From the NCBI GenBank assembly GCA_900315945.1, contig ONAZ01000001.1, positions 86,701 through 150,700 on the forward strand: a stretch of 64,000 nucleotides of DNA, written 5' to 3'. The DNA is from an uncultured Lachnospiraceae bacterium. Lineage in GTDB: Bacteria > Bacillota > Clostridia > Lachnospirales > Lachnospiraceae. Positions 41,239-62,444 of this stretch are shown here, in pieces. The first letter of the stretch is position 1, and every line of letters begins with the position of its first letter. The notes under the pieces were generated by a model. That model was not told where the DNA came from, ran no database searches, and worked only from the letters and a program-made list of their open reading frames with translations. The translations under genes were made by a program, and so were the position numbers.

Positions 41239-41895
41239 TTACCAGATTTTAACTACGTCAAAGAAATCTTTCATATTAGAGCCTTTCTTGCCAATATTGT
41301 CTGCTATAAAAGACAGTTCTACAAAAATCTCGTATGTGCTTTTATATATTGTAAATACATTTTCAACTACTGCATTTCTTTTTGCTTTTATTATTTTTTC
41401 ATTTTTATATGAGTTCTTTCCGCTGTTCAGTTTATTGTAAATATCAGTGTCTGCTTTAAAATCTTCTATCGAACGATATTTTAGATTCTTTCTAATAAAC
41501 TTATCTACCTCCCCACCTTTATAATCCTCGCAATGCAAACACGCAACGTATTCAAAATCAGGACTGTTTATTATTAATATATGCGGTGTTCTCCTGCTTT
41601 TATTCTCTCTAATACAATACTTTATCAAATCTACCAATTTTTTTCTTTCTTCATAATCAGTTGCTTTATCTCCATCTATCACAATAAATTTGGCCAAACA
41701 TGCTACGTCGCTGTCCTCCTTAACTTTTTTCAAAAAATTACTATACCCTCCCCCAAACATATTTACCGGAGTGACGTTCAATGTAACTAGCTTATTCTTT
41801 CTGATATATTCATAGTAATGGTATTCTGTATCACCTTCGCAAAAAACCCTAAATCTTGGTTTCAAAGTTCTAGTTTTTCTACTCATTGGCGACAC
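41239..41895 (-). CDS. RloB-like TOPRIM-type nuclease, partner of AAA ATPase
   Basis: 218 residues. PF13707 (RloB) pattern: FRVFCEGDTEYHYYEYIRKN at the start, with the conserved Glu of a TOPRIM-like fold, FIVIDGDKATDYEERKKLVD as the acidic DxD strand, and HILIINSPDFEYVACLH. RloB proteins pair with RloA-type ATPases; the related AbiL and PARIS systems abort phage infection. It overlaps the end of the ATPase gene by 17 bases, so they are one unit. Role in defence is inferred from the family and the neighbourhood. Confidence 0.78.
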   Translation of the reverse strand: MSPMSRKTRTLKPRFRVFCEGDTEYHYYEYIRKNKLVTLNVTPVNMFGGGYSNFLKKVKEDSDVACLAKFIVIDGDKATDYEERKKLVDLIKYCIRENKSRRTPHILIINSPDFEYVACLHCEDYKGGEVDKFIRKNLKYRSIEDFKADTDIYNKLNSGKNSYKNEKIIKAKRNAVVENVFTIYKSTYEIFVELSFIADNIGKKGSNMKDFFDVVKIW

Positions 41896-43132
41896 CTCCC
41901 AAAATACCTTTCATGTAAAACTCATATATTTTTGTCACTTCATATCTAACTTCTGGAAAATCAGACAGGGAGTATAATTCTGACTCTAATGTCTCTATAT
42001 CTTTCGTAGCAAAATATATTTGTTCCTTCATGTAATTCTTCAAATCTAAATGCAACACATTATGTGTTGTAAAAATAAACTGTCCTGTGTGTTGTTTCCC
42101 ATTTATGAAAGAAACTATTCTATCTGAAAGAACCGGATTCAATACCCTATCAACCTCATCTGCTATTATGCACTTGTTTTTATATACTACCTTATATATT
42201 TGAATCGCCCACGCAAAGTATTCTCCGATTCCACTAGAATCATTTTTTATCTCTCTTCTAAACACCGTTCCATCTTTCCTCTTCCTGACTATCACTGTCC
42301 TTGTATACAACTCCTTCTCATTTATTTCTATTCCTGCAATACTATAATCAATCATTCTTAGAATTTCTATAAACCTCAAGTCCTTAACAATATTCTCATC
42401 TTCCTCTTCACCGCTAACCGCTTTTATAAAATCGAGATTTATAGTAGGTGAAATAACATCAAAATAATTATTTATCCAATCCACAAAAGAATATGCTTCT
42501 TCAACGGCCAAAAGGGCTAACTTATTAATAAAAAGTCCCGAAGATGCCTCTGTTTTCATCCTTTCAATGACTTCTTCATTATACTTATCTTCACCAGCAA
42601 AAGAAATATTTACAACCATAGATAATTTATCTTTTTTCCCCTCTTCGCCATGTGTAGTAAGTATCTTTTTTCGTCTTAAATCAAGAACCGACTTATACTT
42701 CGCTGTTTTGTTTTTTTTAACATCTAGTTTTTCACTAACAATACCCATTCTGTCTATTTCTAAATGATATAAATAGATTTTATTATTTATAAGAACTTCT
42801 ATTTCAAAAAGTTGTCTTAATTGCTCATCCTCTAGATCATTTCTTCTCTTCGCCTTTTCATAGGCGTTTGAATTAATGGTAGAACCATATGCTCTTATCC
42901 AATCATTACTTGACAATAAAAATTTCAAATACTCAAAACTTCTAACAAAATTAGTTTTTCCACCGGCATTCTCTCCAACTATAACGCAAATTTTATTTAT
43001 ATCATATCCTGTAGAAGTCGTAACATAATTATCCTCAAATCTTCTCCTTACTTTTGAGGCAGCTGCTTTCATTGAGAATTCAACATTATCTCTATAAGAG
43101 CAAAAATTTTTAAATTTATATGATATTATCAT
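41879..43132 (-). CDS. AAA ATPase (RloA/AAA_15, SbcC/RecF-like)
   Basis: 417 residues from the ATG at 43132, set by GGAGGT four bases upstream; an earlier in-frame ATG lies inside that site. Begins MIISYKFKNFCSYRDNVEFS, the standard N-terminal strand of RecF/SbcC-type ATPases, Walker A VIVGENAGGKTNFVRS, then a central helical insertion, and Walker B CIIADEVDRVLNPVLSDRIV with signature HTGQFIFTTHNVLHLDL. It forms, with the RloB-like TOPRIM gene, a two-gene system like RloAB, AbiL (AbiLi/AbiLii) or PARIS. In PARIS the ATPase cages its nuclease and releases it on sensing phage inhibitor. Confidence 0.82.
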   Translation of the reverse strand: MIISYKFKNFCSYRDNVEFSMKAAASKVRRRFEDNYVTTSTGYDINKICVIVGENAGGKTNFVRSFEYLKFLLSSNDWIRAYGSTINSNAYEKAKRRNDLEDEQLRQLFEIEVLINNKIYLYHLEIDRMGIVSEKLDVKKNKTAKYKSVLDLRRKKILTTHGEEGKKDKLSMVVNISFAGEDKYNEEVIERMKTEASSGLFINKLALLAVEEAYSFVDWINNYFDVISPTINLDFIKAVSGEEEDENIVKDLRFIEILRMIDYSIAGIEINEKELYTRTVIVRKRKDGTVFRREIKNDSSGIGEYFAWAIQIYKVVYKNKCIIADEVDRVLNPVLSDRIVSFINGKQHTGQFIFTTHNVLHLDLKNYMKEQIYFATKDIETLESELYSLSDFPEVRYEVTKIYEFYMKGILGGVANE

Positions 43133-43239
43133 AATTACCTCCATATCGTTATTCTGATTTGTTTGATTTTTATAATAATGATTATATCATTTTTTGCTAT
43201 TGATTAAACATTTTTTTGTTTTATCTCGCAGAATCACCC

Positions 43240-44463
43240 CTATCGACAATTTCCTTTAATGGTATAGAAATAATCCTCATTATTATTTACATGTATTATA
43301 CTATTACAAAGCCTTTCAAGTTGATGTAGCAAATAGGGGTCTGGGTGCCTGTATTTATTTCCTATTCCATAACTGCAAATCATATTAGTATAATTCAATG
43401 GCAATGAATCAATAGTATTCTCAGACATATTATGGCTCGATCCATGATGAGGCATTTGAAAAAAACCAATTTGAGGTAGCACTTTGTTAATATACTTTGT
43501 AAATCTATTTTTTTTAGATAACTTATCTAGATTAATATCACCTGTAAGTAATGTTGCAACTCTTCCCTTTGCCAATACACACTTATGACAATAACATTTA
43601 CAACAATATCTTCTTCGGCAATATTCTCCGTTATCCCAAGAAACAAAAGCATCACTATCGCTAGGATAATGACACAGCACTAATGAGCTTTGATTAATCT
43701 TACCCTCTACTTTATCATAAATATCTTTACACAGTTTTCCTCTTCTAGTGTCTATAAGGCTCTCAATGCTATTCTCCGGAAAATCTTCACCAAATTTTAA
43801 TCTATATTCTTTTCTAATTTCTTCTTTTATCTCATGACATTGAGCTTTATTTTGGTCTTGATATATTTTAAATTCCCAACAACGATTGTAGATTTTTACT
43901 GATTCACTTGAGCACCTAACATAATCCTTTCCCTTTTTACTTGTATCTATAATTCCATTCATCGTTTCAATAATTATACCGTCTGTTATGTCATTATTAT
44001 TCGCATATCCAATTCTATCTCCTTGAAATTCTCTTTCATTATTTGGCGTATCATCCTCTTCCCCTTCAACAACATAAACTCTACACTCTCCTGCAAAAAA
44101 ATCAATAGGATTAGAGTAAAAGTCGTATAATTCGTCCCCTCGTTTTACATCATATTTTAAACACAACAACCATAATTCTTCTTCGGTAAATGCTGGTAGA
44201 AACACATTCTTAATATGATATGTTTCACTTAAATGTTTTACTCCAGATATATGATCTTTATGATAATGAGATATAAATAACGCATCAATCGTATCATCAG
44301 AGAAGCTTGAATCTATTTTACCTATTAATAAACTCTTATCCTTTTCGTAGTTCGTTCCACAATCATAAACAAAATTGCTCTTTCTTCCCCCACTGGTTGA
44401 AATAGATGCACTATAAAATAACCCTTGTCCAACACCATTAAACTTACATTCTGCTCTTATCAT
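43240..44463 (-). CDS. ComEC/Rec2-like metallo-beta-lactamase fold protein with Cys cluster
   Basis: 407 residues. MBL features: FNGVGQGLFY, FVYDCGTNYEKDKSLL, LFISHYHKDHISGVKHL (the HxHxDH site), LLTGDINLDKL and QMPHHGSSHNMSE. The domain alone lacks the membrane part of ComEC and is cytoplasmic. Unusual is a Cys-rich insertion around residue 295 (GEYCRRRYCCKCYCHKCVLA) with seven cysteines, which looks like an extra metal site. Stand-alone MBL proteins of this group act in anti-phage systems as nucleases or cyclic-nucleotide hydrolases. AAAGGG precedes the ATG; the small ORF upstream overlaps it by 20 bases. Confidence 0.72.
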   Translation of the reverse strand: MIRAECKFNGVGQGLFYSASISTSGGRKSNFVYDCGTNYEKDKSLLIGKIDSSFSDDTIDALFISHYHKDHISGVKHLSETYHIKNVFLPAFTEEELWLLCLKYDVKRGDELYDFYSNPIDFFAGECRVYVVEGEEDDTPNNEREFQGDRIGYANNNDITDGIIIETMNGIIDTSKKGKDYVRCSSESVKIYNRCWEFKIYQDQNKAQCHEIKEEIRKEYRLKFGEDFPENSIESLIDTRRGKLCKDIYDKVEGKINQSSLVLCHYPSDSDAFVSWDNGEYCRRRYCCKCYCHKCVLAKGRVATLLTGDINLDKLSKKNRFTKYINKVLPQIGFFQMPHHGSSHNMSENTIDSLPLNYTNMICSYGIGNKYRHPDPYLLHQLERLCNSIIHVNNNEDYFYTIKGNCR

Positions 44464-44829: not shown

Positions 44830-45642
44830 TTATAACATCTTCATATAATTGGAATACTCGCTCTTTGGAATGCCAATATACTCCATTGCCTTTTCAGCAG
44901 AACACTTGAGGTTCTTCATGAGGGCTCTTATATCCTCTGCTTTACTTTCTGTTCTACCATCTTCTCTACCAGAATCATATTTCTTCTCTGCATATCTTTC
45001 AACTGCTTCACACATAGTCTTTCTCCCTTCCTTATTCTCCTTGAAATGTTTAACTCCTTCTTCAAGTTCCTTATAATTAAATCCTTTTGTTGTTCTTTTT
45101 TTCATATCTGATATCAATCGTCCTATGTCATCATCACCCTGGTAGTCACCATTGACATATATAATATGGCTACCGTCGTTAAACATCTCTCCTGACTCAA
45201 GAGTCCTGTTTATACGATATATAGGATTACACTTGTCGAAGTAGTCATTCTCGGTGATAAATATTACATAAGAATCTTTCAATTCCTTCGGTTTCTGACT
45301 TGACATCAACATTCTTGTGTCCAACATACTGGAGTTGAACCTTGCCCGCCTCGGGTCTGCTCCATCATCTCGTCTTTGTACTTCGCAGTCAAAATAGTCA
45401 CCATTAGAATCTCTTGCAAAAATATCTAATCTAATTCCTCTACCGTCAACGAGTTCATTTTTAATGTTCCACTGTCCCTTAGATTCCACTACCTCGACAT
45501 CAGTCTGAAGAATATTTCTAATTAGAATCTGTGTAGCCTCAATGTTCTCATCAAATACCCTAGACATTAGGTCGTCATCCATTAGACACATATTGTCAAT
45601 AATAGACTCTACCTCGTTTACATACTTTTCTTTTTCACTCAT
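44830..45642 (-). CDS. Rpn-family PD-(D/E)XK nuclease (transposase-like)
   Basis: 270 residues. PDDEXK_2/Rpn type: VFDENIEATQILIRNILQTD, LDIFARDSNGDYFDCEVQRR (D...ExQ active site), RRARFNSSMLDTRML, KELKDSYVIFITENDYFD, and a KGFNYKELEEGVKHFKENKE tail. Rpn proteins promote RecA-independent recombination or act as recombination-linked endonucleases, and vary by C-terminal length. The start at 45642 is set by GGAGG eight bases upstream; an ATG two codons earlier is too close. Transcribed away from the divergent recombinase gene. Confidence 0.85.
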   Translation of the reverse strand: MSEKEKYVNEVESIIDNMCLMDDDLMSRVFDENIEATQILIRNILQTDVEVVESKGQWNIKNELVDGRGIRLDIFARDSNGDYFDCEVQRRDDGADPRRARFNSSMLDTRMLMSSQKPKELKDSYVIFITENDYFDKCNPIYRINRTLESGEMFNDGSHIIYVNGDYQGDDDIGRLISDMKKRTTKGFNYKELEEGVKHFKENKEGRKTMCEAVERYAEKKYDSGREDGRTESKAEDIRALMKNLKCSAEKAMEYIGIPKSEYSNYMKML

Positions 45643-45843
45643 AGGCATTTCCTCCTTAGTTTCATTACAGGAGTTAATACGCCTATATATAACAACTCCT
45701 GCTTATATTTTTGTGGGGTTAATAAGCAGGAATTTCTGTTTGAATATTAGAATTTTTATAATAAATAATAATTGATTAATAGAAATATTCTGCTTAAGGG
45801 TATGATAACATCATAAGGAATAAAAGACAATCGTTTTTTGTTG

Positions 45844-45871
45844 TTGATAATTATAAACTTATCACTAAATT
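45844..45871 (+). promoter_or_regulatory. Recombinase promoter candidate
   Basis: TTGATA (45844-45849), 16 bases, TAAATT (45866-45871) on the plus strand, 29-56 bases before the recombinase ATG; ribosome binding site AGGAGG at 45885-45890. Weak -10 box, so moderate support only. Confidence 0.35.
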
Positions 45872-45899: not shown

Positions 45900-46817
45900 A
45901 TGCTACTTACTAATTTAATAGAAGGATATCTAAGTTACTGCAAAGATATTAAACTCTTAAACAATCACACAATAAAAGCTTACAAAATAGACCTACGACA
46001 GTTTTGCCATTACTTTGATAAAGAGTGTATTGAAGCCATCACGTCAACGAAGCTTGAGTCATACATTTCTGTTCTTCATCGTAAATATAAACCACGAACT
46101 GTGAGACGAAAACTTGCTTCAATCAAAGCATTTTTTCATTACTTGGAATATAAGGATCTGATTAGAATAAATCCATTCTCTAAATTATCCATAAAATTTC
46201 GAGACCCAATCAATCTCCCAAAAACCATCCCTCTATCAACTATTGAAGCAATTCTAAAAGCCGCTTATAACGAAAAAACTATGGGTGCAACCGATAAAAG
46301 AAGGGAGGATTCTATTAGGGATATTGCAATGCTCGAGCTTCTATTTGCAACCGGAATCAGAATATCGGAGCTATGTAGTCTTACACCAAAGGATGTCGAT
46401 TTGAACAACCATATAATTCTTATTCATGGGAAAGGTATGAAAGAACGAATGATTCAGATTGAAAATTCTGACACTCTCAATGCTCTACAAAGCTACTACA
46501 AACACTTTCAAGATGCTATCGTCAACTGTAATCGTTTCTTCGCTAACAAAAAAGGAACAGCACTGTCTGACCAATCTGCCAGACGCATAATCCGACGTTA
46601 TTCCGATCTAGCTTCAGTATCTCAGCACATTACTCCTCATATGTTCCGTCATACTTTTGCTACTTCACTTATGGATGCCGGTGTAGACATAAGATACATA
46701 CAAGAACTTCTAGGACACAGTTCTTTATCTGTAACGCAAATATATACACATGTCTCTATGTCCAAGCAAAAAGAAATTCTCGCCACTAAACATCCTAGGA
46801 ATCAATTTAATATATGA
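45900..46817 (+). CDS. Tyrosine recombinase next to invertible segment
   Basis: 305 residues, complete. N-terminal SAM-like core-binding domain (about 1-90), catalytic domain with R154 (TGIRISELCS), K178 (HGKGMKERM), H247/R250 (HMFRHTFATSLMDAG), H273 (LLGHSSLS) and nucleophile Y282 (TQIYTHVS). XerC/D-sized, with no excisionase and no phage genes alongside. Its stop is five bases before the left 32-bp inverted repeat of a 4.5-kb segment, which makes it the obvious invertase for that segment. AGGAGG nine bases before the ATG. No terminator separates it from the repeat, so its transcript probably runs into whichever gene is on that side. Confidence 0.9.
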   Translation: MLLTNLIEGYLSYCKDIKLLNNHTIKAYKIDLRQFCHYFDKECIEAITSTKLESYISVLHRKYKPRTVRRKLASIKAFFHYLEYKDLIRINPFSKLSIKFRDPINLPKTIPLSTIEAILKAAYNEKTMGATDKRREDSIRDIAMLELLFATGIRISELCSLTPKDVDLNNHIILIHGKGMKERMIQIENSDTLNALQSYYKHFQDAIVNCNRFFANKKGTALSDQSARRIIRRYSDLASVSQHITPHMFRHTFATSLMDAGVDIRYIQELLGHSSLSVTQIYTHVSMSKQKEILATKHPRNQFNI

Positions 46818-46822: not shown

Positions 46823-46854
46823 AAAAGTGAAGGATAATTGTAGATTATCGGTTG
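46823..46854 (+). repeat. Left 32-bp inverted repeat (recombination site)
   Basis: Begins AAAAGTGAAGG and ends ATCGGTTG. Its centre GATAAT-TGTAG-ATTATC has two inverted arms around five bases, the layout of a tyrosine recombinase core site. Exact reverse complement of 51344-51375. Confidence 0.85.
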
Positions 46855-46868
46855 AAATAGGAGCTTTT

Positions 46869-47987
46869 ATGTCAGGACAATCCATCATAATTCCGTATCA
46901 CAGGGACAAAGAGATGATTAAATACGCAGTAAATTGTATTGTTAAGACAGTTTCCGCTGATGTGGAGATAGTTATTGTCGGTAACAACTACTTATCAGAA
47001 GAACTAGTGGTGGACTTCCCATACAGCAATGTAAAATACTATGCAATTGAAGAGAACCTATTTTATCCACGGGCAATTAACTTTGGCGTAGAGCGCTCTA
47101 ATGGTGAAATAATTACATTTGTTGATCCTGATGTATTTGTAAAAAGTGGTTGGTATGAACCACTCATAGAGGCCATCGCAAATAATGATATTGGAGCGGT
47201 TGGATGTAAGCTTATTAATCCGTCTACCGGGCGTATCATAGATTTCGGGATTTCGCATACAATGGTTAATGCCGTACACCCATTAATGGGAGAAAGGCCG
47301 TCGTTTTACCTTGCTTATGAAAACAGAAGAGTGCAGTCCATTTGCAGCGCAGTACTCACCACTAGGCGCTCTTTGTTTGAAGAAATTAACGGAATGGACA
47401 TCAATCTACCCTATACATACACGGACATAGATTATTGTTTTAGGCTCGGTGATATAGGAAAATCCACCGTAGCCTGCGCCAACTCAGTTGCATATCATAA
47501 AGGCAGCTCGGATCCCGAAAATTCCAAGTCATATTCTTTTAAATACCTCAATGCCGATAGCAAGGCTATGTTTTATAGCAAGTGGGGAGAGCGGATTCCA
47601 ATTGATTTGGGAAAATGGTTCAATATCTCCTTTTCATACTTCAGGAAGATAAATAGTGATTTTGCACGAAGGGTGTTCCTTTTAGATCTTTCAACCGTTT
47701 ATGATCGTAGCTATTATTATGGACTTCTTCACGAGCAGGGTATAGAGTTTCTTGAAAATCATGTAGTTCCGGTAAAGACAAGAGACATTGACCATCTTAC
47801 CCTGCATAAGATGGTTGCTTTTGATATAATTGAAACCGCATCACCAATACTCTATTTTGTAGACAGTTTTTTAGAACTATTTGATAACAGCCTTTGGTTT
47901 AATCACAGGGACATTTCCCGTGACTATGTTGTAGACAGAAATGGATGTGTTCATATGTTAGCCGACATCAGCAATCGTGCTTGCTAG
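46869..47987 (+). CDS. GT2-family glycosyltransferase in the invertible segment
   Basis: 372 residues from the ATG at 46869, which has AGGAG seven bases upstream; reading further upstream enters the inverted repeat. GT-A fold: SGQSIIIPYHRDKEMIKYAV, IVGNNYLSEELVVDFPYSNV, FYPRAINFGVERSNGEIITF followed by VDPDVF (the metal-binding Asp region), and DIDYCFRLGDIGKSTVACAN. The C-terminal 120 residues are not assigned. Resembles rhamnosyltransferase-type enzymes acting on surface polysaccharide. In the present orientation it follows the recombinase without a terminator, so any expression comes from read-through. Its codon and amino acid use are less AT-biased than in the glycan operon, suggesting separate origin. 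Confidence 0.85.
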   Translation: MSGQSIIIPYHRDKEMIKYAVNCIVKTVSADVEIVIVGNNYLSEELVVDFPYSNVKYYAIEENLFYPRAINFGVERSNGEIITFVDPDVFVKSGWYEPLIEAIANNDIGAVGCKLINPSTGRIIDFGISHTMVNAVHPLMGERPSFYLAYENRRVQSICSAVLTTRRSLFEEINGMDINLPYTYTDIDYCFRLGDIGKSTVACANSVAYHKGSSDPENSKSYSFKYLNADSKAMFYSKWGERIPIDLGKWFNISFSYFRKINSDFARRVFLLDLSTVYDRSYYYGLLHEQGIEFLENHVVPVKTRDIDHLTLHKMVAFDIIETASPILYFVDSFLELFDNSLWFNHRDISRDYVVDRNGCVHMLADISNRAC

Positions 47988-47989
47988 GT

Positions 47990-50900
47990 TCATACTAACA
48001 AGGGAAGATTCAGCAAGCCGTCCTGCGTCTTCAAAATACCATTTACCAAGACTGTTGACTTCTTTTCAGAGGCACAGTTTTTAATAGATCTACATTGATT
48101 AATATTTTGATTTATTTGATCCATTTTGGCTTTTCTGTTCAATGTCGTCGGTACATTTTCCATTAGTATTAGAGCTTCATTGAAACATTCTATAGCGGAA
48201 TTATATTTTTGAGCATAAAAGAAAAATATCCCTTTTAATATAAAAGAGTCCCCTACTTTCATGGGATTTTTAAGCATATCCATTGTCATCACTTCATTAA
48301 TGCAATCGTCTATCTTAGAAAAGTCTTCTTCGTCTCGTTCCAATAGCCTGCACACGATATCGAGCTTCTTCAAAAAAATGGAAAAAACAAGATGATTCCG
48401 GTCCCTGTCATTATTCAATAAGTACTCGCGTATAAGCCTAGCCGCTGTACGTGCGCCTTCCACATCCCCCTTAATCAGGCACAGCTGTGCGGTTTTTCTG
48501 TAAATGTTAAGAATTTTTGATGGAATGAGTTTTATGTCGTGAGTAAGGCATTTTCCCCATAATGATATAATTTTATTGCTGTTTTGGTTATAAGTATAGT
48601 ATAAGTAACCTAGATCAGATTCGTTCAAATATATCATCTCCTCACGCAGAGATTGATCATTTATTCTTTCTGCGTAGTACATAGATTTATTGTAAACGGT
48701 CATTATTTGGGCTTCGTTGTCATTGGAATAATCAAAATCTCGGTATACCACCATCTCTCTGTTATATATTAATGCCAGCAGTGCATTTTTCTGATCATCA
48801 TCTGGTAAGGAGACTGATGCAGCTTCCAACTCCTGCAGAAACGTCAATGCCTCATCTGTCCTTGAAACGATACGCATAGTGTCTGCATATGTATCTACAA
48901 ACACACGAAATTCATTGAATTGGTACAATACATCATAGTTCACTTTAAGAATATTTTTGTTAATGATATCAAAAAGCAACAGGGACTTTTCATATCCATA
49001 GATATTTCTGTAACTATAGCATAAATCCATGGCTAGTAATACTGCTTCAGAGTCATAAGAATCATCCTGGATTTCTTCTAGGATATATGAAATAGTACTT
49101 TTATAAATATAGTAACTGCAAACCTCTCGCTGTCTTATTGATGTAAGTACTGATGACCACTCTATAACCGCTCTCCTATGCATACTTTTCGTTTTGATTG
49201 TGCACAATGCATAAAGCAAAGGATATCTTTTAACATCGTTTATCAGTTTAGATTTAACTACTTTGTTTATTATCTGGAAATAGTTTTCTTCCTTATATCT
49301 GATACATGCTATCTCAAATTGTTCGTGAACAAACTTGAATCTTCCATTGTCTGTTTCATACAGGATATATTCACCACACAAAAGATCAAGAACACTAACA
49401 TCTAATGACAGTGTAGAAATATCATTTCTTGTCGCCTTCGGAATTAAACTTATCAAGGAGAGAATGGCGAGAACATCCTTTTCTTCCACGCCGTGATTCT
49501 CTACAAAACCCTTATATTGGGAAACCATTAGTTCATACATATCTGTTGGAAGCTTCTCAAGTGTTCTTTTAAACATATCAGGTTTGGGAATAGATGACAA
49601 CTCCTTACCATCTAGGATAATACAGGAACTGGATATAAGCTGTTTTACAACGCTCTTTATCATATATGGGTTATCGTACCGGTTCAGAATCATCCTAAGC
49701 AAAGGGACGAATTTATCGTCCTTTACTGACAGAATATTTCGAAGAAAACTTTCTGATTCATTCCTATCAAATCCCGATATTTTTAGAGAAATAAAGCAGC
49801 TGTTGTCATTATTTGCACCGGACACCATCTTCATAAGGTTTACGACACTTTCATTTCCACGCTCATAGTTGTAGGAAAATATGAAAACAGATTGATTAGG
49901 TCTTCGCATAGCATTTGCATATTCTATAAATCTTGAGAAGAACGCTATCGCTGTATCTCCATATTTCTGAAGATCATCTATAATAATCGCGGTTTTGCGC
50001 TCTGAAGCTTTTTCGGCTATTAAATGGGCTATCATATCTATAAATTTCATATCTAGCAATTTTTCTTTACCTACGCGATTTATTATATTAATTATCCTAT
50101 ATGCACGGGCAGCCCCGTCTGAACTTTCATTTTCAGAAAGTACATCATCTTCGATCATAGATGAAATATCCACAGAGGGTATATCGTAAAGAAATGCCAG
50201 AATCTCCCTAAGCAGTATTGTTATATCCTCAGATACCATATCCATAAAGCTAACTATCCTATAGCCATTGACAATTAGTTTGTCTCGCATCTCCCTTAAT
50301 AGACGGGATTTTCCTATGCCACTTCTTCCCTGTAATGCGAAACAGCAAAAACGTGTTCTATCGATTATCGTATTATTAAAGTCTTGTACACAGCTACGAT
50401 ATTCATTTCCTGTCAATTCAACCTCGTTGTTCCAAAGTAACCGCGTTTTACTAACGGGACTGTTGAATATGTTAGTTTTTCCGTTACAGGTGACTCGTAC
50501 AGATACCTGCGGAAGAAGTACAGATTCAGCAGACATAATAGGTTTAAGAGGAATTCTAATGCAAGAATTCTGAGAAGATGTCTTAATATCTATATTCTCT
50601 CTGCCTGACATCTTTGGATGCAGATTCTCAAACCATGCATTATCATCAACATCGGGAATGCTCACTAATACTTCCGCAATATCTCTGTTATCAGGAACGT
50701 CTACATAAATAATGAGCTCAAATGGTGAAAACCTGTCAAGATACTCTGTCTTTTCATATGTGTGCATTAATTCGTCATCTGTAACGGCTCCAAAAACCAC
50801 ATCTCTGACAGTATAAAAAACGACATCAATGCTACGTTCATCCTTTTCTTCATAGATTATATCTTCAGGTTTCGGCTTAAATTTACTACTTAGGGTGTCC

Positions 50901-51325
50901 TTGACTGCAAGAACCATCTCGTCTAGAAGCCTGTCATCATAAATATTTATCTCGCTATTAGTCTTTTCCGCATATAAAGCCAGTTTTTTTCGTGTATTTT
51001 TATTGATTTTAGAGTAACTAAAGAAAAGGATTTTATTTACCGAATACGCTCTGGCCATTACAAGCGTTGGAGCTATGATTTTTAACGAAATACTGTCAGA
51101 AAAATTTTTACATTCCGCCCAAATTCTTTGCCTTTCGTTTGAAAGATAGAAATCCCGGTTGTCGTCATGACTCTTTTTTGTTCTACGCCATTCTCCATAC
51201 GGAAACATCTGAATCAATAATTCTTCGACAAGATCTTCAAAGATATGTCCGTCTCTGGTGCTTTTCGTATTTATGGTTTTATTCTTTTTAAAATTGTCCC
51301 AGTAACTATCTGATAACCTTCTCAA
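47990..51325 (-). CDS. Mrr-like nuclease / STAND ATPase / TPR protein (Avs-like)
   Basis: About 1111 residues. The start is a TTG at 51325 with GGAG seven bases upstream; no ATG precedes the first conserved strand. N-terminal PD-(D/E)xK domain with DGHIFEDLVEELLIQMF, NRDFYL and IWAECKN (Asp58, Glu71 and Lys73 from the TTG). A P-loop at about 333-340 (QGRSGIGKSRLL), a Walker B near 450 (TAIIIDDLQKYGD), then STAND-type helical regions, and a C-terminal half of tetratricopeptide-like helices (e.g. GDVEGARTAARLIREYLL, YNSAIECFNEALILM). This is the order of Avs-type antiviral STAND proteins, which detect a phage protein through the repeats and unleash the nuclease. Here it sits behind a consensus promoter. 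Confidence 0.78.
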   Translation of the reverse strand: MRRLSDSYWDNFKKNKTINTKSTRDGHIFEDLVEELLIQMFPYGEWRRTKKSHDDNRDFYLSNERQRIWAECKNFSDSISLKIIAPTLVMARAYSVNKILFFSYSKINKNTRKKLALYAEKTNSEINIYDDRLLDEMVLAVKDTLSSKFKPKPEDIIYEEKDERSIDVVFYTVRDVVFGAVTDDELMHTYEKTEYLDRFSPFELIIYVDVPDNRDIAEVLVSIPDVDDNAWFENLHPKMSGRENIDIKTSSQNSCIRIPLKPIMSAESVLLPQVSVRVTCNGKTNIFNSPVSKTRLLWNNEVELTGNEYRSCVQDFNNTIIDRTRFCCFALQGRSGIGKSRLLREMRDKLIVNGYRIVSFMDMVSEDITILLREILAFLYDIPSVDISSMIEDDVLSENESSDGAARAYRIINIINRVGKEKLLDMKFIDMIAHLIAEKASERKTAIIIDDLQKYGDTAIAFFSRFIEYANAMRRPNQSVFIFSYNYERGNESVVNLMKMVSGANNDNSCFISLKISGFDRNESESFLRNILSVKDDKFVPLLRMILNRYDNPYMIKSVVKQLISSSCIILDGKELSSIPKPDMFKRTLEKLPTDMYELMVSQYKGFVENHGVEEKDVLAILSLISLIPKATRNDISTLSLDVSVLDLLCGEYILYETDNGRFKFVHEQFEIACIRYKEENYFQIINKVVKSKLINDVKRYPLLYALCTIKTKSMHRRAVIEWSSVLTSIRQREVCSYYIYKSTISYILEEIQDDSYDSEAVLLAMDLCYSYRNIYGYEKSLLLFDIINKNILKVNYDVLYQFNEFRVFVDTYADTMRIVSRTDEALTFLQELEAASVSLPDDDQKNALLALIYNREMVVYRDFDYSNDNEAQIMTVYNKSMYYAERINDQSLREEMIYLNESDLGYLYYTYNQNSNKIISLWGKCLTHDIKLIPSKILNIYRKTAQLCLIKGDVEGARTAARLIREYLLNNDRDRNHLVFSIFLKKLDIVCRLLERDEEDFSKIDDCINEVMTMDMLKNPMKVGDSFILKGIFFFYAQKYNSAIECFNEALILMENVPTTLNRKAKMDQINQNINQCRSIKNCASEKKSTVLVNGILKTQDGLLNLPLLV

Positions 51326-51343
51326 CCTAAGTCTCCAAAAAAA

Positions 51344-51375
51344 CAACCGATAATCTACAATTATCCTTCACTTTT
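51344..51375 (-). repeat. Right 32-bp inverted repeat (recombination site)
   Basis: Exact reverse complement of 46823-46854, with the same GATAAT-TGTAG-ATTATC core. It lies between the outside promoter (51391-51419) and the TTG start of the STAND gene (51325). Confidence 0.85.
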
Positions 51376-51390
51376 TACTAATACAAATTA

Positions 51391-51419
51391 ATTATATTAT
51401 TAATCTGAAATTATTTCAA
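51391..51419 (-). promoter_or_regulatory. Consensus promoter reading into the invertible segment
   Basis: On the minus strand TTGAAA (51419-51414), exactly 17 bases, TATAAT (51396-51391). The predicted start at about 51384 lies 9 bases before the right repeat. It is outside the repeats, so it stays fixed when the segment inverts. No terminator separates it from the isomerase gene upstream. Confidence 0.8.
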
Positions 51420-51442
51420 CGCAATACATCCTTTAAGTCTAT

Positions 51443-52372
51443 TTACAAATTACCCAGATAACATCCTATCCTATATATCACCCTTAGCGCATCTCCCCTA
51501 AGCTCTTCAGGGAAGGACTTAAGCACAGGTGATGTCTCGAAGCTTAACACTCCGTCGTATCCAATAGCCTTTAGTCCCTTCACGAACCCATCCCAATCGG
51601 TGCTGGGTTTGTTCTCTCTCGACCTTGTAAATGTAAAAGGCACTTGATGAAGGTCTGCCATGCCGTCATTGTCATGTATATGAAGAACCTTGAGTCTAGA
51701 CCCAAGTGTCTCAATGAATTCCCGGAAATTAATTCCTACAAGATTGGCATGTCCTGTATCAAAGCAAAAGCCCAACACTTCTGTTCCGTACTTTGCATTT
51801 ATCTCGTCTATTCTCTTAACAGCCTTGGCTGCATTGCAACACGGTCCTTCTATAATATGCGCTCCTGCGCTCTCGTATATATTCTCAATACATATTGTTA
51901 TTCCATGTTCTGCTGCGAAAGGCGCCAAAAATTCTATGAACTTCTGTGTCTCCTGCCACTCTAATTCCTCCGAGCCCAGGAACCTTGACAGTTTGAAACC
52001 ATGAATAACAATATATCTACATCCAAGATAACTGCATATCTTCATACTCTTAACTGCCATTACTTCCCGAAGATAGTCATTGAATTCCCCGGACGCAGTA
52101 GGCACATAGTTAGGATAAGGCATATGCATCTGGAATATCTCTATACCCGATTCCTCACAACCGTTCCTAAGTGGCGCAAAGTATTCATAAAGCTCTTCTT
52201 CACTTTTATCAAAGAAAGGATTCTTTTTAGTCTTGTATAAATCCTTGTTAGTAAGATATGAATGCAGGCTGAAATCAATACTTGAAAAACCAATCTCCTT
52301 AAGTCTCTTCAAGTCTTCTAATGGCTCTTCATGATTAACCGCTATACTTGACTGAACTCCGATTCGTAACAT
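51443..52372 (-). CDS. Sugar phosphate isomerase/epimerase (xylose isomerase-like TIM barrel)
   Basis: 309 residues, a single AP-endonuclease-2-type barrel. Seen: GVQSSIAVNHEEPLEDLKRL, LGCRYIVIHG, ITICIENIYE, GFCFDTGHANLVGI, VLHIHDNDGMADLHQVPF and VLSFETSP, giving the Glu/Asp/His/Glu metal set of this family. Paralogue of 17440-18711 but without the extra Rossmann module. Starts 12 bases after the ATPase gene and has AAGGAG. Close to a cytidylyltransferase-oxidoreductase fusion, matching the gene set seen around 12-21 kb. Substrate unknown. Confidence 0.84.
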   Translation of the reverse strand: MLRIGVQSSIAVNHEEPLEDLKRLKEIGFSSIDFSLHSYLTNKDLYKTKKNPFFDKSEEELYEYFAPLRNGCEESGIEIFQMHMPYPNYVPTASGEFNDYLREVMAVKSMKICSYLGCRYIVIHGFKLSRFLGSEELEWQETQKFIEFLAPFAAEHGITICIENIYESAGAHIIEGPCCNAAKAVKRIDEINAKYGTEVLGFCFDTGHANLVGINFREFIETLGSRLKVLHIHDNDGMADLHQVPFTFTRSRENKPSTDWDGFVKGLKAIGYDGVLSFETSPVLKSFPEELRGDALRVIYRIGCYLGNL

Positions 52373-52384
52373 ATTCTTCTCCTT

Positions 52385-53827
52385 CTACCAACGATTATCT
52401 TCAAACAAATCATCTAGTATAACTTGTCTACTAACTATATCACTATACATATTTTTCTTGACACCATAGGTTGTTATCATTGCAAGACCTACACCCTTTT
52501 TTGTTCCTGAAACCAAGCGAAAAGTCTCCATCTTGCGTCTCAGGCTCTTGTCATATTCTTTGTCAATGACAAATTCATCTGAAGAGAATTTCATCTCACA
52601 TATTGTAATAACTTTATCCTGGCGGTCAATTAACAAATCTATCTGTACTCCATCATATACCTCGTCAGCTTTCTTATACCATATGGAGTGTTGTGTGAGA
52701 ACTCCTCCTATCCCAAGCTTATTCTTTATCTGATAAATGTGGTCTAAACATAACTGCTCGAATGTAAATCCTCTCCATGCTATTCTCGAACTACTATCGA
52801 TACTATGACTCCAAAAATGTTCATCATTTCCGTACCCATCCTTTATAAATTTATAATAAAAGAGTGTATAATAATCGGCCAGCTGGTATAACGATTTCTT
52901 CTTTTTATTCCCCCAAAAATAATTCATTCTGACAAAATCAGAATCTATAAGATCATTTAGAATCCTTGTGAGTTCACCATTTTGTGGAAAATTAGTAATC
53001 TCTGATATCTCTTCACGGCTTAGCCCTCTACGCTTTGAACCTAATGCTTCAACGACCTTGATATACTTTTCACTAGATGAGAAAAGAGTTCTATACAAAT
53101 GCTCAAACTCATCCCAAAGCTCAGCTCGCTTCCTAAAGAAAATCGAATCTATATTCTCGTTATATGTTAGTTGGGGAGACAGTAATCTTAGATAATAGGG
53201 TATCCCGCCCATTATCATGTAGCATTCAGCTATGTTAAATCTAGGCCACTCGATACCTTTTCCCCTTAGAAAAGCTTCTGTGGTCGCGAGATTAAAAGGT
53301 CTAAGATATATCCTGCATGTTAGTCTGTTGTATAATCCACCTTTATTATGCATGATATTATCGCGAAGCCACGATGTCGCGGAACCACATACAATAAATA
53401 CAAGGTTCTTAATAGCACTTCCATGCGAATTCCAAAAATACTCAAAGGCATTAAGGAATCCAGAACGCCTTGAATCCATCCAAGGCATCTCATCAAAGAA
53501 AACCACATGCTTCTCCGTTGCCGGCAAAGACTTAATATATACATAAAGCAAATGGAATGCCTCTTGCCAATCCTTTGGTGCAGTTATTTCCTTATTTGTC
53601 TGCCCACTTAATTCATAAGCAAAATTTCTAAGCTGTACTTCTTTTGTCGCCTTGTATTCCCCTGTAAACTTAAAGTCAAATCTATTCTCAAAAAACTCGT
53701 TTACCAGAAAAGTCTTGCCCACTCTACGCCTTCCATACACAAGAACAAGTTGGGCCTCGTCACTTTCCATACAGTTTTTCAACTTTTCACATTCTTCTTC
53801 TCGTCCTATAATTTGTCCAGAATTCAT
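52385..53827 (-). CDS. P-loop ATPase with DUF234-type C-terminus
   Basis: 480 residues. N-terminal archaeal-type AAA domain: IIGREEECEKLKNCM, LVLVYGRRRVGKTFLVNEF (Walker A), HVVFFDEMPWMDSRRSGFLN (Walker B) and FIVCGSATSWLRDNI; then a winged-helix-like linker (SKRRGLSREEISEITNFPQNG). The end is a DUF234-type PD-(D/E)XK-like domain with DLLIDRQDKVITICEMKFS (D...ExK). Such proteins are common in gut anaerobes and have no settled role; involvement in phage or plasmid interaction has been suggested. Has its own consensus promoter and AGGAGG. Confidence 0.85.
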   Translation of the reverse strand: MNSGQIIGREEECEKLKNCMESDEAQLVLVYGRRRVGKTFLVNEFFENRFDFKFTGEYKATKEVQLRNFAYELSGQTNKEITAPKDWQEAFHLLYVYIKSLPATEKHVVFFDEMPWMDSRRSGFLNAFEYFWNSHGSAIKNLVFIVCGSATSWLRDNIMHNKGGLYNRLTCRIYLRPFNLATTEAFLRGKGIEWPRFNIAECYMIMGGIPYYLRLLSPQLTYNENIDSIFFRKRAELWDEFEHLYRTLFSSSEKYIKVVEALGSKRRGLSREEISEITNFPQNGELTRILNDLIDSDFVRMNYFWGNKKKKSLYQLADYYTLFYYKFIKDGYGNDEHFWSHSIDSSSRIAWRGFTFEQLCLDHIYQIKNKLGIGGVLTQHSIWYKKADEVYDGVQIDLLIDRQDKVITICEMKFSSDEFVIDKEYDKSLRRKMETFRLVSGTKKGVGLAMITTYGVKKNMYSDIVSRQVILDDLFEDNRW

Positions 53828-53847
53828 ATGTTGCCCTCCTAGACAAT

Positions 53848-53876
53848 ATTATAGTACACTTTTAGACGCATTTCAA
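53848..53876 (-). promoter_or_regulatory. Promoter of the DUF234-type ATPase gene
   Basis: Minus strand TTGAAA (53876-53871), 17 bases, TATAAT (53853-53848), predicted start at about 53841, then AGGAGG before the ATG. The next ~90 bases upstream repeat the heptamer GTCTAAA in several places, which may be a regulator site. Confidence 0.8.
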
Positions 53877-53970
53877 GTTTTAATCCATCTAACCCCCTCC
53901 TTATTTTTAACATTTAGACAACTTTAAGCGTTTAATTTATCTAAATATCGCAATAATGTTAGCTTTTAGA

Positions 53971-55320
53971 TTATAAAGCTTTGTTGCTCATTCTATGCTT
54001 CATATACTTCCCAATAATCTCAGCCATGACTACAGCTTCTCCTGCTGTGTATTTATAGCTGTTTCTTCCAGCTCCATTAATCTTCAAGACGAATTCACTT
54101 ATCTCGTATCTGAATCCATCTCCCTGGAAGCTTGGCTCATATACATCCACCTTAGACGGATCTTCAAAATGTACCTCAAAATGCTTTGTCATCCACCAAG
54201 GCGATGGTGCAAGAATATATCCCTTTGTACCAGATATTACAAGATTACCTTCCGACTTAACTGCAACACCATTCTTAGATGTAGCCATACCATTACCGTA
54301 TTCTAATTCCGTCTTGGTATATATATCGACGCCTTTATCATCATATAATGTCTTGAATCTAATATCCTTATATTCTTTGCCAAGTAGCTTTATAGCTGGA
54401 AGCAATGTATAGCTTCCGAATTCCAAAAAGCTTCCCTCGTATATGTTAGAAGTCCTCTCTCTTGAATTAGGCTCTGCTAATCTGGTATATGCCGCTTCCA
54501 CATCTCGGATTTCACCTATTACACCAGAACTTGCAACATTCATTAACTGTTGAAATCCTGGACAATACGCAGTCTTAATAGCCTCCATTAATACGAGGTC
54601 ATGCTCCTTGGCATAATCATATAATTCTTCCGCTTCATCTCTCTTAAAGCATAGCGGCTTCTCACATAAGACGTGCTTACCTGCATGAAGTGCCTGCTTA
54701 GCATATTCATAATGTGTCTCATTAGGTGATGCAATATATATAGCATCCACCTTATCTAAGAATTCATCATATGACTCATAATAATTGTCCAGTACATATC
54801 TCTTCTTCAAGAACTTGTCTTCCTTTACTTCAGGGTTAAATGTACATATTACATTTACACCAGATACATACTTGACCTCCGATAGGAATCTTGGAACAAT
54901 TCTACCTGTCCCAACAATACCAAGATTAATAATCTTAAAGCTATTATTCCTAATCTGGGTTGACGACACATCAGGCGTCCTGTCAAGATATACTACTTCA
55001 CAGAACTGCTTAAGATAATCGAAGGTTCCCACCCAATCAGAACCAAGTGTAAATATATCAACATCATATTTCTGAATATCCTCTATCTTCTGACCAACAT
55101 GGTCTTCCACAATAATCTCATCAGCAAAACCCGTGGAACGAACATTTTCAATACGCGTCATAATAGGGTCAACGACATTGACCTTACCACGAGCCTCATC
55201 GTAATGGTCAGTTGTTACACCAACTATTAGATAATCTCCTAATTCCTTAGCGCGCTTTAATAGATTGTAATGTCCATTATGAAATAAATCGTATGTACCG
55301 TAAGTTATTACTTTTTTCAT
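53971..55320 (-). CDS. CDP-alcohol cytidylyltransferase fused to Gfo/Idh/MocA oxidoreductase
   Basis: 449 residues from the ATG at 55320 (GGGAG six bases upstream; earlier in-frame starts lack one). Residues 1-126: TagD/GCT-type nucleotidyltransferase with VITYGTYDLFHNGHYNLLKR (HxGH), YLIVGVTTDHYDEARGK and SSTQIR (the family ISSTxIR motif). Residues 130-449: NAD(P)-dependent oxidoreductase with LGIVGTGRIVPRFLSEV, YIASPNETHYEYAKQAL, AGKHVLCEKPLCF and MEAIKTAYCPGF. The fused form suggests the reduced polyol phosphate is passed straight to CTP activation, as TarI/TarJ do for ribitol. The alcohol is unknown. Its oxidoreductase half is a paralogue of that in 12146-14023. Confidence 0.85.
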   Translation of the reverse strand: MKKVITYGTYDLFHNGHYNLLKRAKELGDYLIVGVTTDHYDEARGKVNVVDPIMTRIENVRSTGFADEIIVEDHVGQKIEDIQKYDVDIFTLGSDWVGTFDYLKQFCEVVYLDRTPDVSSTQIRNNSFKIINLGIVGTGRIVPRFLSEVKYVSGVNVICTFNPEVKEDKFLKKRYVLDNYYESYDEFLDKVDAIYIASPNETHYEYAKQALHAGKHVLCEKPLCFKRDEAEELYDYAKEHDLVLMEAIKTAYCPGFQQLMNVASSGVIGEIRDVEAAYTRLAEPNSRERTSNIYEGSFLEFGSYTLLPAIKLLGKEYKDIRFKTLYDDKGVDIYTKTELEYGNGMATSKNGVAVKSEGNLVISGTKGYILAPSPWWMTKHFEVHFEDPSKVDVYEPSFQGDGFRYEISEFVLKINGAGRNSYKYTAGEAVVMAEIIGKYMKHRMSNKAL

Positions 55321-55351
55321 GATAATCTCCCACATACGAATAATCATCAAA

Positions 55352-55392
55352 TACCCACCCGCTCATAAGAAAATCGCTTGGTGGGTTTTGAC
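55352..55392. terminator. Terminator between LicD block and cytidylyltransferase gene
   Basis: ACCCACC and GGTGGGT pair across a 20-base loop that itself contains a partial CGCT/AGCG stem; a short T-run follows on the plus side only, so as a terminator for the minus-strand LicD operon it is of moderate strength. Confidence 0.45.
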
Positions 55393-55403
55393 TGATTATT
55401 CGC

Positions 55404-56381
55404 TTATACTCCTCTTATCTTCATCTCAATGAGTTCATCCATCATCTCATCGCTAAGTGCTGTATTGAATTCCTTTTCCATAACTTCTTTTAGTCCCTCA
55501 CGCTGTTCTTTATAGAATGGATATTCATGGGACGCACCCACATTCTTCGGCGTCATATAATCGTCTCCATAATTAAACCTCAATATGTTTTCATATCCCA
55601 CAGGAACAGGAATAGTTGTGTTCTCAAAAGGCATATCAATATATTCTTCATACCATTTTCTATCACAATGATAATAATCCCAATCAATAGCAAGCGCAAG
55701 CATGCAACTAACTTCTGTCGTCTCTTCATCAACATAACTTGCAGAAACAATATCAAATGCCTTCTTAGCTTCATGTCTTAATCGATTATTATAATCTATC
55801 TCTATTCCTAGTGTGTCTTCTATCTGAGACATTAGATCCATCACATCATCATCATATGGTGGCTCTTCAGGAATAGACGCTTCAACCTTAAGCAAGAATT
55901 TCAATGTATCTACCGTTGTCTCTAATCTCTTAGCGTCTGACGGTATATTATCAACAGGGAACACATCTACACCCACAACATAAGGACACATATGAAATCT
56001 TTCTAAGAATTCTGGCTCGAAATTCATATGTCTTTCGTTAATAACACGAGCTTTAACAATATCATCTGTAGGATCATTATATACACTTTTTAACTCAAAC
56101 CATTTATCAAGATGCTTTGGTGCTTCTTCTAGAAACTTCATATAATCTCGGCGAAGCATGCCAACATCAAGATCATCATCCCAAGGAATAAAACCATTAT
56201 GACGCACGGCGCCAAGCATAGTTCCCCAATCGGCGAAATATTGTATATCTAATATCTCGCACACTCGTTTTATTTCACCAAGCACTTCTATCTGAGCCGC
56301 CCAAGCCCTCTTCATCATCTTTGATATTGTAAATCCATCTCTAACTTCTTCTTCAAAGTATTCCTCTGGAAATGTGAACAT
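55404..56381 (-). CDS. LicD-family phosphotransferase
   Basis: 325 residues, a single LicD domain of the nucleotidyltransferase fold, which transfers phosphocholine or a related alcohol phosphate from a CDP donor to sugars of surface glycans. Seen: YFADWGTMLGAVRHNGFIPW followed by DDDLDV (the catalytic GxLxxxR...PWDDDxD), FEPEFLERFHMCPYVVGVDV, and the C-terminal FENTTIPVPVGYENILRFNY with GDDYMTP. All acidic metal ligands are present. Last gene of a four-gene block (GT2-LicD, LicD-LicD, methyltransferase, LicD). Natural CDP donor is unknown but a CDP-alcohol synthetase gene lies next. Confidence 0.88.
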   Translation of the reverse strand: MFTFPEEYFEEEVRDGFTISKMMKRAWAAQIEVLGEIKRVCEILDIQYFADWGTMLGAVRHNGFIPWDDDLDVGMLRRDYMKFLEEAPKHLDKWFELKSVYNDPTDDIVKARVINERHMNFEPEFLERFHMCPYVVGVDVFPVDNIPSDAKRLETTVDTLKFLLKVEASIPEEPPYDDDVMDLMSQIEDTLGIEIDYNNRLRHEAKKAFDIVSASYVDEETTEVSCMLALAIDWDYYHCDRKWYEEYIDMPFENTTIPVPVGYENILRFNYGDDYMTPKNVGASHEYPFYKEQREGLKEVMEKEFNTALSDEMMDELIEMKIRGV

Positions 56382-56401
56382 ATATCCTCGCTTTCACTAC
56401 T

Positions 56402-57457
56402 CTATATAAAGGACGCTACCTTTTCATCTACTATGACAACATTTAATTCTTCTATTTCTCTAAGATTAACTAGTGCACTCTCTACTAGCGAGTCACGATA
56501 ACACACAACTACTGTTGAATCTTTCCTAATTTCATCAAGCTTAGCAATAGGATAATTAATAACATTTTCAGGATTTTCACTATCTTCTTTAATTACAAGC
56601 GAGCAATCACATATATCTATCCTTGCTAATGCATCATACATCCTTCTGCTATCATTTCTTGCTCCATATACATATACTTTACCTACTCCTTTTATCCTAC
56701 TAATAAAAGACTTAGCCTTTTCTTGTATATCCTCAAAATCTCCTTTAACTCCTATAGAAGCACTCTTACCTTTATTAACTATAACTCCTATTCCCATCCA
56801 TCTATTAGGAAACTGAGCAAAAATCATCTTAGGTAAACTTTCGGTTAAAACTCCAACCTCATTCCAGCATCTTACTATTCCACCATTACACGAATCATAT
56901 TCATGAGCAAATATATCATGGAAGCACACAATTTTCTTAGCGAATCTTCCCACATTCAGATAATCCTTCATAGCAGCGTCATAACTATGATCTGCATCAA
57001 TAAATACAAAATCGTATTCTTTGCCTTTATAATCATCTGTTGTACTTGGAATACTTTTCTTAAGACAAGGTAGAATCTTACTAAACTCTTCATATCCATC
57101 AAGATAATCTTCTATATCAACCATCTCATATACAAGATTAGGATTATTTCTATACAAAATTGCGCATATAAAGTAAGAACTTCTTCCCCTATATACTCCA
57201 ATTTCAATTGCGCTTTGTATTTTCATATCCACAAGATAATGACAAAAGTTCGCAAATTCTCCTGGAACTTGAATCATTCCATTTTCAGTAAATACTGCTT
57301 CTTCTCCCAACTCTTGAAGCCAAGGAAGGGGCGTAATTCCATACTCTCGAACCTGGGATAATATAAAATCAACATTATGAATCTCATCATCCGTAGCATT
57401 CAATATTCTATTAAGTACATTAAGCTGTCTATCTATATCTACCATTCTATTCTCCAT
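56402..57457 (-). CDS. Class I SAM methyltransferase with C-terminal Rossmann module
   Basis: 351 residues. The N-terminal half is a methyltransferase of the cephalosporin-hydroxylase/Methyltransf_24 type: AIEIGVYRGRSSYFICAILY, VDIEDYLDGYEEF, YDFVFIDADHSYDAAMKDYL and CFHDIFAHEYDSCNGGIVRC. The C-terminal ~95 residues are a divergent copy of the recurring Rossmann module (KVYVYGARNDSRRMYDAL, VIKEDSENPENVINYPIAKL). The ATG overlaps the TAA of the upstream LicD gene by one base (TAATG). Probably methylates a glycan or its phospho-alcohol. Confidence 0.8.
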   Translation of the reverse strand: MENRMVDIDRQLNVLNRILNATDDEIHNVDFILSQVREYGITPLPWLQELGEEAVFTENGMIQVPGEFANFCHYLVDMKIQSAIEIGVYRGRSSYFICAILYRNNPNLVYEMVDIEDYLDGYEEFSKILPCLKKSIPSTTDDYKGKEYDFVFIDADHSYDAAMKDYLNVGRFAKKIVCFHDIFAHEYDSCNGGIVRCWNEVGVLTESLPKMIFAQFPNRWMGIGVIVNKGKSASIGVKGDFEDIQEKAKSFISRIKGVGKVYVYGARNDSRRMYDALARIDICDCSLVIKEDSENPENVINYPIAKLDEIRKDSTVVVCYRDSLVESALVNLREIEELNVVIVDEKVASFI

Positions 57458-62412: not shown

Positions 62413-62444
62413 AAACATCATGTGTTTTAGTCTATAACACTTCC

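What the first reader, a model, noticed from the sequence alone, without database searches (positions are those of the whole stretch)
46823..51375. Recombinase-linked invertible segment that swaps a glycosyltransferase and an Avs-like immune gene
Perfect 32-bp inverted repeats bound exactly two convergent genes, and a tyrosine recombinase ends five bases outside the left repeat. Each gene begins within 20 bases of a repeat and neither has internal room for a promoter. Inversion would therefore exchange the two genes between the position behind the fixed promoter and the position behind the recombinase. One setting would favour an intracellular nuclease defence, the other a surface glycan change that could alter a phage receptor. 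I know of no described system that pairs these two strategies on one DNA switch. The repeats and gene layout are seen; switching and its purpose are inference.
Basis: partly seen in the sequence, partly recalled or inferred. Interest (0 to 1): 0.95.

Follow-up and report, generated by a model that had tools for sequence, protein, structure and literature searches.

The report
Flippable slot for swappable immune-gene pairs
A bacterial chromosome carries a DNA slot, bounded by two mirror-image 32-base sites next to a recombinase gene, that holds a glycosyltransferase gene facing a likely anti-phage gene; a same-genus relative holds a different gene pair in the same slot and other relatives hold the same kind of pair the other way round, so flipping the slot would likely change which gene the one predicted promoter drives.

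Summary
In detail: perfect 32-bp inverted repeats (46823-46854, 51344-51375) bound exactly two convergent genes beside a XerD-like recombinase. The interpretation changes, because this is one member of a family. Of 112 distinct loci with this recombinase (window included), 43 show a complete pair of inverted sites sharing a dyad core, and 40 of those 43 have inward-facing end genes. One arm is usually an enzyme, the other a STAND, SIR2 or pentapeptide-type protein; five are TIR + SIR2 (Thoeris-type) pairs. Pair types occur in both orders relative to the recombinase in 7 of 9 testable cases. The slot is also exchangeable: a same-genus genome keeps flank, promoter and repeat but holds an unrelated ATP-grasp + STAND pair; Streptococcus plasmids show three cargoes in one slot. 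A predicted promoter beyond the far repeat points inward in the window and as a family trend (p=2.5e-6). Best reading: an invertible, exchangeable cassette slot for two-part immune-type modules. Flipping within one strain, recombinase activity and immune function were not shown.

The parts
45900..46817 (+). XerD/XerC-like tyrosine recombinase gene (305 aa)
   Evidence: Pfam PF00589 E 3e-42; closest solved chain XerD 1a0p E 3e-37; motifs GIRISEL, GKG, HMFRH, LGH, IYTH found
46823..46854 (+). left recombination site, 32-bp repeat (dyad core 46833-46849)
46869..47987 (+). GT2 glycosyltransferase gene, 372 aa from ATG 46869 (alternative GTG start 46827 inside the repeat)
   Evidence: PF00535 E 6e-16; GT-A fold model pLDDT 93, Foldseek best matches GalNAc-transferases at E 4e-12
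47990..51325 (-). Mrr-type nuclease + STAND ATPase + TPR protein, 1111 aa from TTG 51325
   Evidence: PF04471 E 7e-6 and AAA_16 E 2e-5 (below its cut-off); invariant D58, E71, K73 and Walker-A residues in 50 homologues; Foldseek best match STAND-TPR 6mfv E 2e-8
51344..51375 (-). right recombination site, inverted 32-bp repeat (dyad core 51349-51365)
51391..51419 (-). predicted fixed promoter TTGAAA-17-TATAAT pointing into the slot; identical in the same-genus genome G304

Best explanation
A XerD-like recombinase gene and two identical 32-bp inverted sites delimit an exchangeable cassette slot holding two convergent genes, and the recombinase likely inverts the cassette so that one or the other gene lies behind the single predicted promoter outside the far site. 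Shown: the sites, the gene layout, the same layout across a recombinase family, both orders of the same pair types in different genomes, and different cargo at the same sites between close relatives. Inferred: that this recombinase catalyses both events, that the promoter is active, and that each cassette is a two-part immune-type system (a substrate- or signal-making enzyme plus a STAND- or SIR2-type sensor-effector), by analogy with the Thoeris-type pairs found in the same kind of slot. In the window's orientation the STAND gene would be driven by the promoter, and the glycosyltransferase would depend on read-through from the recombinase gene.
For: Perfect repeat pair, unique in the genome. 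Complete inverted site pairs in 43 of 112 recombinase loci; dyad core 101 times in 80 loci against 3 after shuffling. End genes inward in 40 of 43 (p 4e-21 if 25% were expected). 7 of 9 pair types in both orders, e.g. window vs L084, Thoeris L081 vs L139 at 74-77% identity. Same-genus G304: collinear flank at 77-89% identity ending at the repeat, same repeat and promoter, other cargo. Three cargoes in one plasmid slot. Cargo swap L054/L060 and filled/empty slot L051/L056. Inward promoter bias at the far side. ThsA matches at E 8e-100, 1e-59 and 1e-60.
Against: No strain was seen in both orientations; all orientation evidence compares different species. 69 of 112 loci lack a complete pair; 27 of these have under 400 bases of right flank, but 23 have at least 7.9 kb. 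4 of 43 pairs differ by one base in the core. Two pair types (5 loci) occur in one order only. No recombinase was found in G304 at E<=1e-20, and its contig ends at the second repeat. Far-side promoter scores reach 10 in only 19 of 41 loci. PADLOC knows neither window cargo protein, and several 'immune-type' labels rest on domain type alone. Exchange could also come from homologous recombination in the flanks.
Confidence: 0.72

Rival explanations
1. One reading: a two-state switch between two alternative anti-phage strategies, an intracellular nuclease defence in one state and a receptor-altering surface glycan in the other.
For: The slot lies at the end of a locus with sugar-metabolism genes; the GT has a GT-A fold; one inward promoter.
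Against: The pair is conserved as a unit. Sister slots hold Thoeris partners, ATP-grasp, SHMT, radical SAM or polyprenyl synthase instead of a GT, so a surface-glycan choice does not explain the family.
Confidence: 0.2
2. The inverted sites serve only cassette exchange between genomes (like pdif modules); flipping is a by-product without regulatory role.
For: Cargo differs at the same sites in G304, S. salivarius-type plasmids and L054/L060; pair types move between recombinases only 48-76% identical.
Against: Inward promoter bias on one side only, terminators facing the slot in 12 of 36 loci against 1 of 36 in the control and inward genes in 40 of 43 fit orientation-dependent expression.
Confidence: 0.2
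3. A fossil: the recombinase no longer acts, and differences between relatives arose long ago or by homologous recombination.
For: No within-strain flip seen; recombinase missing from G304.
Against: Cores match exactly within 39 of 43 loci although they differ between loci; the recombinase is open with its motifs; contigs break at sites.
Confidence: 0.06

Closest known systems
xrs cassettes / pdif modules of Acinetobacter plasmids
   Same: Genes flanked by Xer-type sites, mostly inverted, with cargo that varies between related plasmids (PMC11705084, passages).
   Different: There host XerC/D acts and the flanking sites often differ in the central region, and no excision was detected; here a dedicated recombinase gene adjoins one slot, the two cores of a pair match, and cargo is a convergent two-gene module.
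Invertible segments that swap genes behind a fixed promoter (Mu G / P1 C segments, recalled; invertons, PMC7154626 passage)
   Same: Recombinase beside an invertible segment bounded by inverted sites; gene order relative to a fixed outside promoter changes.
   Different: Invertons as described there move promoters; Mu and P1 swap tail-fibre genes by serine recombinases (recalled). Here the cargo is enzyme + immune-type pairs and is itself exchangeable.
Thoeris (ThsA/ThsB)
   Same: Five sister slots hold TIR + SIR2 pairs; three ThsA proteins tested match strongly.
   Different: The window pair is GT + STAND, with no TIR or SIR2. I recall no description of Thoeris split across an invertible segment.
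Avs (antiviral STAND) proteins
   Same: Nuclease + STAND + repeat sensor order.
   Different: No PADLOC Avs hit; in Foldseek an AVAST5 chain ranks only 25th, E 1.7e-3.
Integrons; P2-like phage fun gene
   Same: Recombinase-linked gene capture (integrons, recalled); [quoted passage not shown]
   Different: No cassette array here; one two-gene cassette between two inverted sites.

Membership tests
Recombinase-driven invertible DNA switch | Matched inverted sites bounding the segment | tested here: met
Recombinase-driven invertible DNA switch | Recombinase gene with catalytic motifs beside the segment | tested here: met
Recombinase-driven invertible DNA switch | Both orientations in one strain | not testable with these tools
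   no reads; only cross-species orders
Recombinase-driven invertible DNA switch | Expression depends on orientation | not testable with these tools
   promoter and terminator predictions only
pdif module / xrs cassette | Variable cargo between the same paired sites in related replicons | tested here: met
pdif module / xrs cassette | Action by host XerC/XerD rather than a local recombinase | tested here: inconclusive
   a local recombinase is present, below the NCBIfam XerC and XerD cut-offs; no activity data
Integron | Integron integrase and an array of cassette sites | tested here: not met
   integron-integrase profile far below its cut-off (106.8 vs 265); only two sites in the genome
Avs | Match to a curated Avs profile | tested here: not met
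   no PADLOC family at E<=1e-3
Avs | STAND ATPase with N-terminal effector and C-terminal repeat sensor | tested here: met
   (nuclease part rests on Pfam and conserved residues)
Avs | Phage protein recognition and protection | not testable with these tools
   needs bench work
Thoeris (sister slots L037, L064, L081, L106, L139) | ThsA (SIR2) and ThsB (TIR) partners | tested here: met
   ThsA profiles for L037, L081, L139 and a ThsB profile for L037 (E 6e-9, second to PDC-S66); L064 and L106 by BLAST cluster only

The most novel reading that the evidence does not exclude
Flip-to-arm immunity: the two arms hold the two essential halves of one immune system (enzyme and sensor-effector; in five sister slots the two Thoeris halves), and only one half is promoter-driven in either orientation. 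Settled cells are disarmed; a cell is armed only when it has just inverted the slot or carries replicated copies in both orientations. The recombinase sets the armed fraction of the population and so contains the cost of autoimmunity, while the same sites let lineages swap in new systems.
Probability: 0.2. Interest if true: 0.95.

Novelty: new variant of a known kind. Interest (0 to 1): 0.86.

Why it matters
It points to a family, centred on Lachnospiraceae with plasmid members in Streptococcus and Aliarcobacter, of plug-in slots that appear both to exchange and to flip two-gene immune-type modules. That gives a search rule for new defence systems (read what lies between the sites), puts Thoeris-type pairs under a possible DNA switch, and makes testable why the halves of one system would be kept on opposite sides of an invertible segment.

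Tried and rejected
Considered and rejected: chance repeats (0 in 100 shuffles); an integron; a single-locus oddity (43 loci); a conserved recombinase operator (a dyad at 45846-45863 upstream of the recombinase occurs in the window and 2 further loci of 109 examined, 0.44 expected: not conserved).

Led nowhere: viral-contig scans gave two loci for the window recombinase and none for the Streptococcus one. A phylum-wide search of 398 genomes found no relative at E<=1e-60 besides the window itself. No same-species pair of loci with both segments complete and in opposite order was found. Ten text searches listed no paper whose title or abstract start describes this arrangement; they cover open-licence PMC papers, no bioRxiv. 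Other Avs chains are not in the VIA-align list, which is no evidence against Avs. The PDB sequence search with the STAND alignment found nothing at E<=0.01.

Labels 'enzyme' and 'immune-type' were set by hand from Pfam and BLAST clusters; on the 36 downstream segments they give 22 enzyme-proximal, 13 immune-type-proximal, 1 unclear. Clusters c7 and c20 have weak or no Pfam support, c9 none. Of 10 proteins in PADLOC, 5 had a hit, one of them weak; the G304 pair had none.

Rows dropped before counts: 9 duplicate loci; the 69 loci without a complete pair in cargo counts; 2 of 43 loci with short far flank; the 7 upstream segments in order counts; L068, whose pair lies further from the recombinase, counted but not.

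Full report
What is there. The arms (46823-46854, 51344-51375) are identical 32-mers in inverted orientation. A 30-base part has no further copy in the window and a 28-base part none in the genome, at up to 3 mismatches. Each arm contains a dyad, GATAAT-TGTAG-ATTATC. The recombinase (45900-46817) ends 5 bases outside the left arm and is related to XerD and XerC. Inside are a GT2 glycosyltransferase (46869-47987) and, convergent with it, an 1111-aa protein with an Mrr-type nuclease domain, a STAND ATPase and TPR-like repeats (51325-47990). Both likely start codons have a purine-rich ribosome-site-like stretch inside the segment close to an arm (sequence). The best promoter match of the region (TTGAAA-17-TATAAT, 11 of 12) lies just outside the right arm and points in, although promoter-like matches as a whole are not above chance (20 found, 25.4 expected). 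No terminator lies between the recombinase and the left arm.

The family. 121 of 299 family genomes have a recombinase hit at E<=1e-40; 42 places (window included) at 44% identity or more stand apart from the 33-42% hits below. The genome-contig scan kept the best 80 of 201 confirmed stretches, mostly titled Lachnospiraceae. In those 80 loci the dyad core occurs 101 times, against 3 in one shuffle of each. After adding 40 of those 42 places with flanks and removing 9 duplicates, 43 of 112 loci, window included, have a complete inverted pair near the recombinase: 36 downstream and 7 upstream of it. Cores are exact in 39 and one base off in 4. Arms are 17-159 bp (median 30), segments 1.7-6.8 kb. 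Of the 69 loci without a pair, 27 have under 400 bases of right flank and 23 have at least 7.9 kb, so an absent or undetected pair is not rare. End genes point inward in 40 of 43.

The cargo. Pfam on 30 cargo proteins and single-linkage BLAST clusters show a recurring plan. One arm carries an enzyme: GT2 or GT4 glycosyltransferase, D-Ala-ligase-like ATP-grasp, ATP-grasp + radical SAM, SHMT, polyprenyl synthase, carbamoyltransferase or methyltransferase. The other carries a STAND-type NTPase (some with Mrr, TIR or SIR2 parts), a pentapeptide-repeat protein, or a protein without clear family. Five segments (L037, L064, L081, L106, L139) carry TIR + SIR2 pairs; the three SIR2 proteins tested match Thoeris ThsA at E 8e-100, 1e-59 and 1e-60. 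The window's GT + STAND pair recurs in L084, L132, L150 and L034. The 4 genomes of 299 with the STAND protein at E<=1e-30 all have the GT partner between such sites; in one of them (L034) the recombinase side is cut off.

Both orders. Among downstream segments nine pair types occur at least twice, and seven of them in both orders relative to the recombinase: GT/STAND (window vs L084), TIR/SIR2 (L037, L081 vs L064, L106, L139), polyprenyl synthase/unknown, GT4/STAND, pentapeptide/ATP-grasp-radical SAM, ATP-grasp/TPR, and ATP-grasp/c20. The closest opposite pair is Thoeris-type L081/L139 at 74-77% identity, with recombinases 60% identical. The window and L084 are more distant: 46% (GT) and 26% (STAND) identity. 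Two types occur in one order only: carbamoyltransferase/STAND (2 loci) and ATP-grasp/TIR-STAND (3 loci).

Exchange. The same-genus genome G304 is collinear with window 51335-62500 at 77-89% identity, and the homology stops within 9 bases of the repeat's inner edge. Repeat and promoter are identical, but the cargo is a 337-aa ATP-grasp and an 806-aa STAND-type protein, the same pair type as L152. The G304 contig ends inside the second repeat, and no recombinase was found in that genome at E<=1e-20. In five Streptococcus plasmids one slot, with sites sharing 26 bases, holds methyltransferase + unknown (2), polyprenyl synthase + unknown (2), or aminotransferase + TPR protein (1), and homology stops at the sites. 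L054 and L060 share long flanks (88-94%, weaker just right of the slot) but not cargo; L051 (filled) and L056 (two sites side by side, no cargo) share 94-98% identical flanks. Three Aliarcobacter plasmids show the same layout with 17-19 bp arms. Several cargo types recur between these phyla at 22-34% identity.

Regulation. In 41 loci scored, promoter-like sequences beyond the far site point inward more than outward (p 2.5e-6); scores of 10 or more occur in 19 of 41 inward and 3 of 41 outward. The recombinase side shows no such bias. Terminator-like hairpins facing the slot follow the recombinase in 12 of 36 loci, including Thoeris-type L081 and L106, against 1 of 36 in the reverse-complement control. 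In part of the family the recombinase-side gene therefore looks insulated. In the window and in Thoeris-type L037, L064 and L139 no terminator was found, so read-through is possible there.

Signs of mixed populations. Contigs end within 400 bases after the recombinase in 22 of 80 loci, and before it in 2 of 80. The 4689-bp G223 contig begins at the first base of a site. Homologue clusters of the STAND protein (11 of 62) and of the GT (15 of 66) have a longest contig of 4.4-4.9 kb, close to the window segment (4553 bp). Those contigs could not be opened, so that they end in sites is inference. Long repeats or strain variation in cargo could break assemblies as well as flipping.

Mechanism and judgement. 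The simplest account is a recombinase acting on two inverted sites: inversion within a chromosome, and replacement when a copy with matching sites is available. That flipping chooses between the genes is inferred. The Thoeris-type slots argue that the two genes are partners, because Thoeris needs both proteins (recalled). Papers: passages found by term were seen in PMC12529663, PMC11868660, PMC11705084, PMC7154626 and PMC8987985; other papers were seen as search listings only. None of the passages seen describes this arrangement.

Noticed in passing
window 41239-44463: Operon-like run on the minus strand next to the slot: RloB/AbiLii-like (E 3e-11), AbiLi-like ATPase (E 3e-54) and a metallo-beta-lactamase-fold protein (PDC-M48B E 4e-17), so the slot adjoins other defence-type genes.
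   Followed up: partly
window 52385-53827: ATPase matching PADLOC candidate PDC-S27 at E 5e-196, inside the sugar-gene locus to the right of the slot.
   Followed up: no
L037 8001-8966: The recombinase reading frame of the closest relative (68%) runs through the repeat (8908-8931) and ends inside the segment, so inversion would change its C-terminal end.
   Followed up: no
L067, L080, L102 (also L105, L109): Two different dyad cores 41-46 bases apart lie within one arm, as if two site specificities were nested.
   Followed up: no
window 46823-46854: The repeat itself contains an in-frame GTG start (VKDNxxLSV); similar starts are seen in L045 and L140, so the site could supply a start codon in either orientation.
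   Followed up: no
window 45846-45863: A GATAA...TTATC dyad 54 bases upstream of the recombinase start, found in only 3 of 109 loci.
   Followed up: yes
L165 9001-13690: A 126-kb contig classed as viral (IMG/VR) has the recombinase (56%) and a pair of inverted cores about 3.4 kb apart.
   Followed up: no
window 44830-45648: PD-(D/E)XK nuclease family transposase gene (PDDEXK_2, E 2e-9) left of the recombinase.
   Followed up: no
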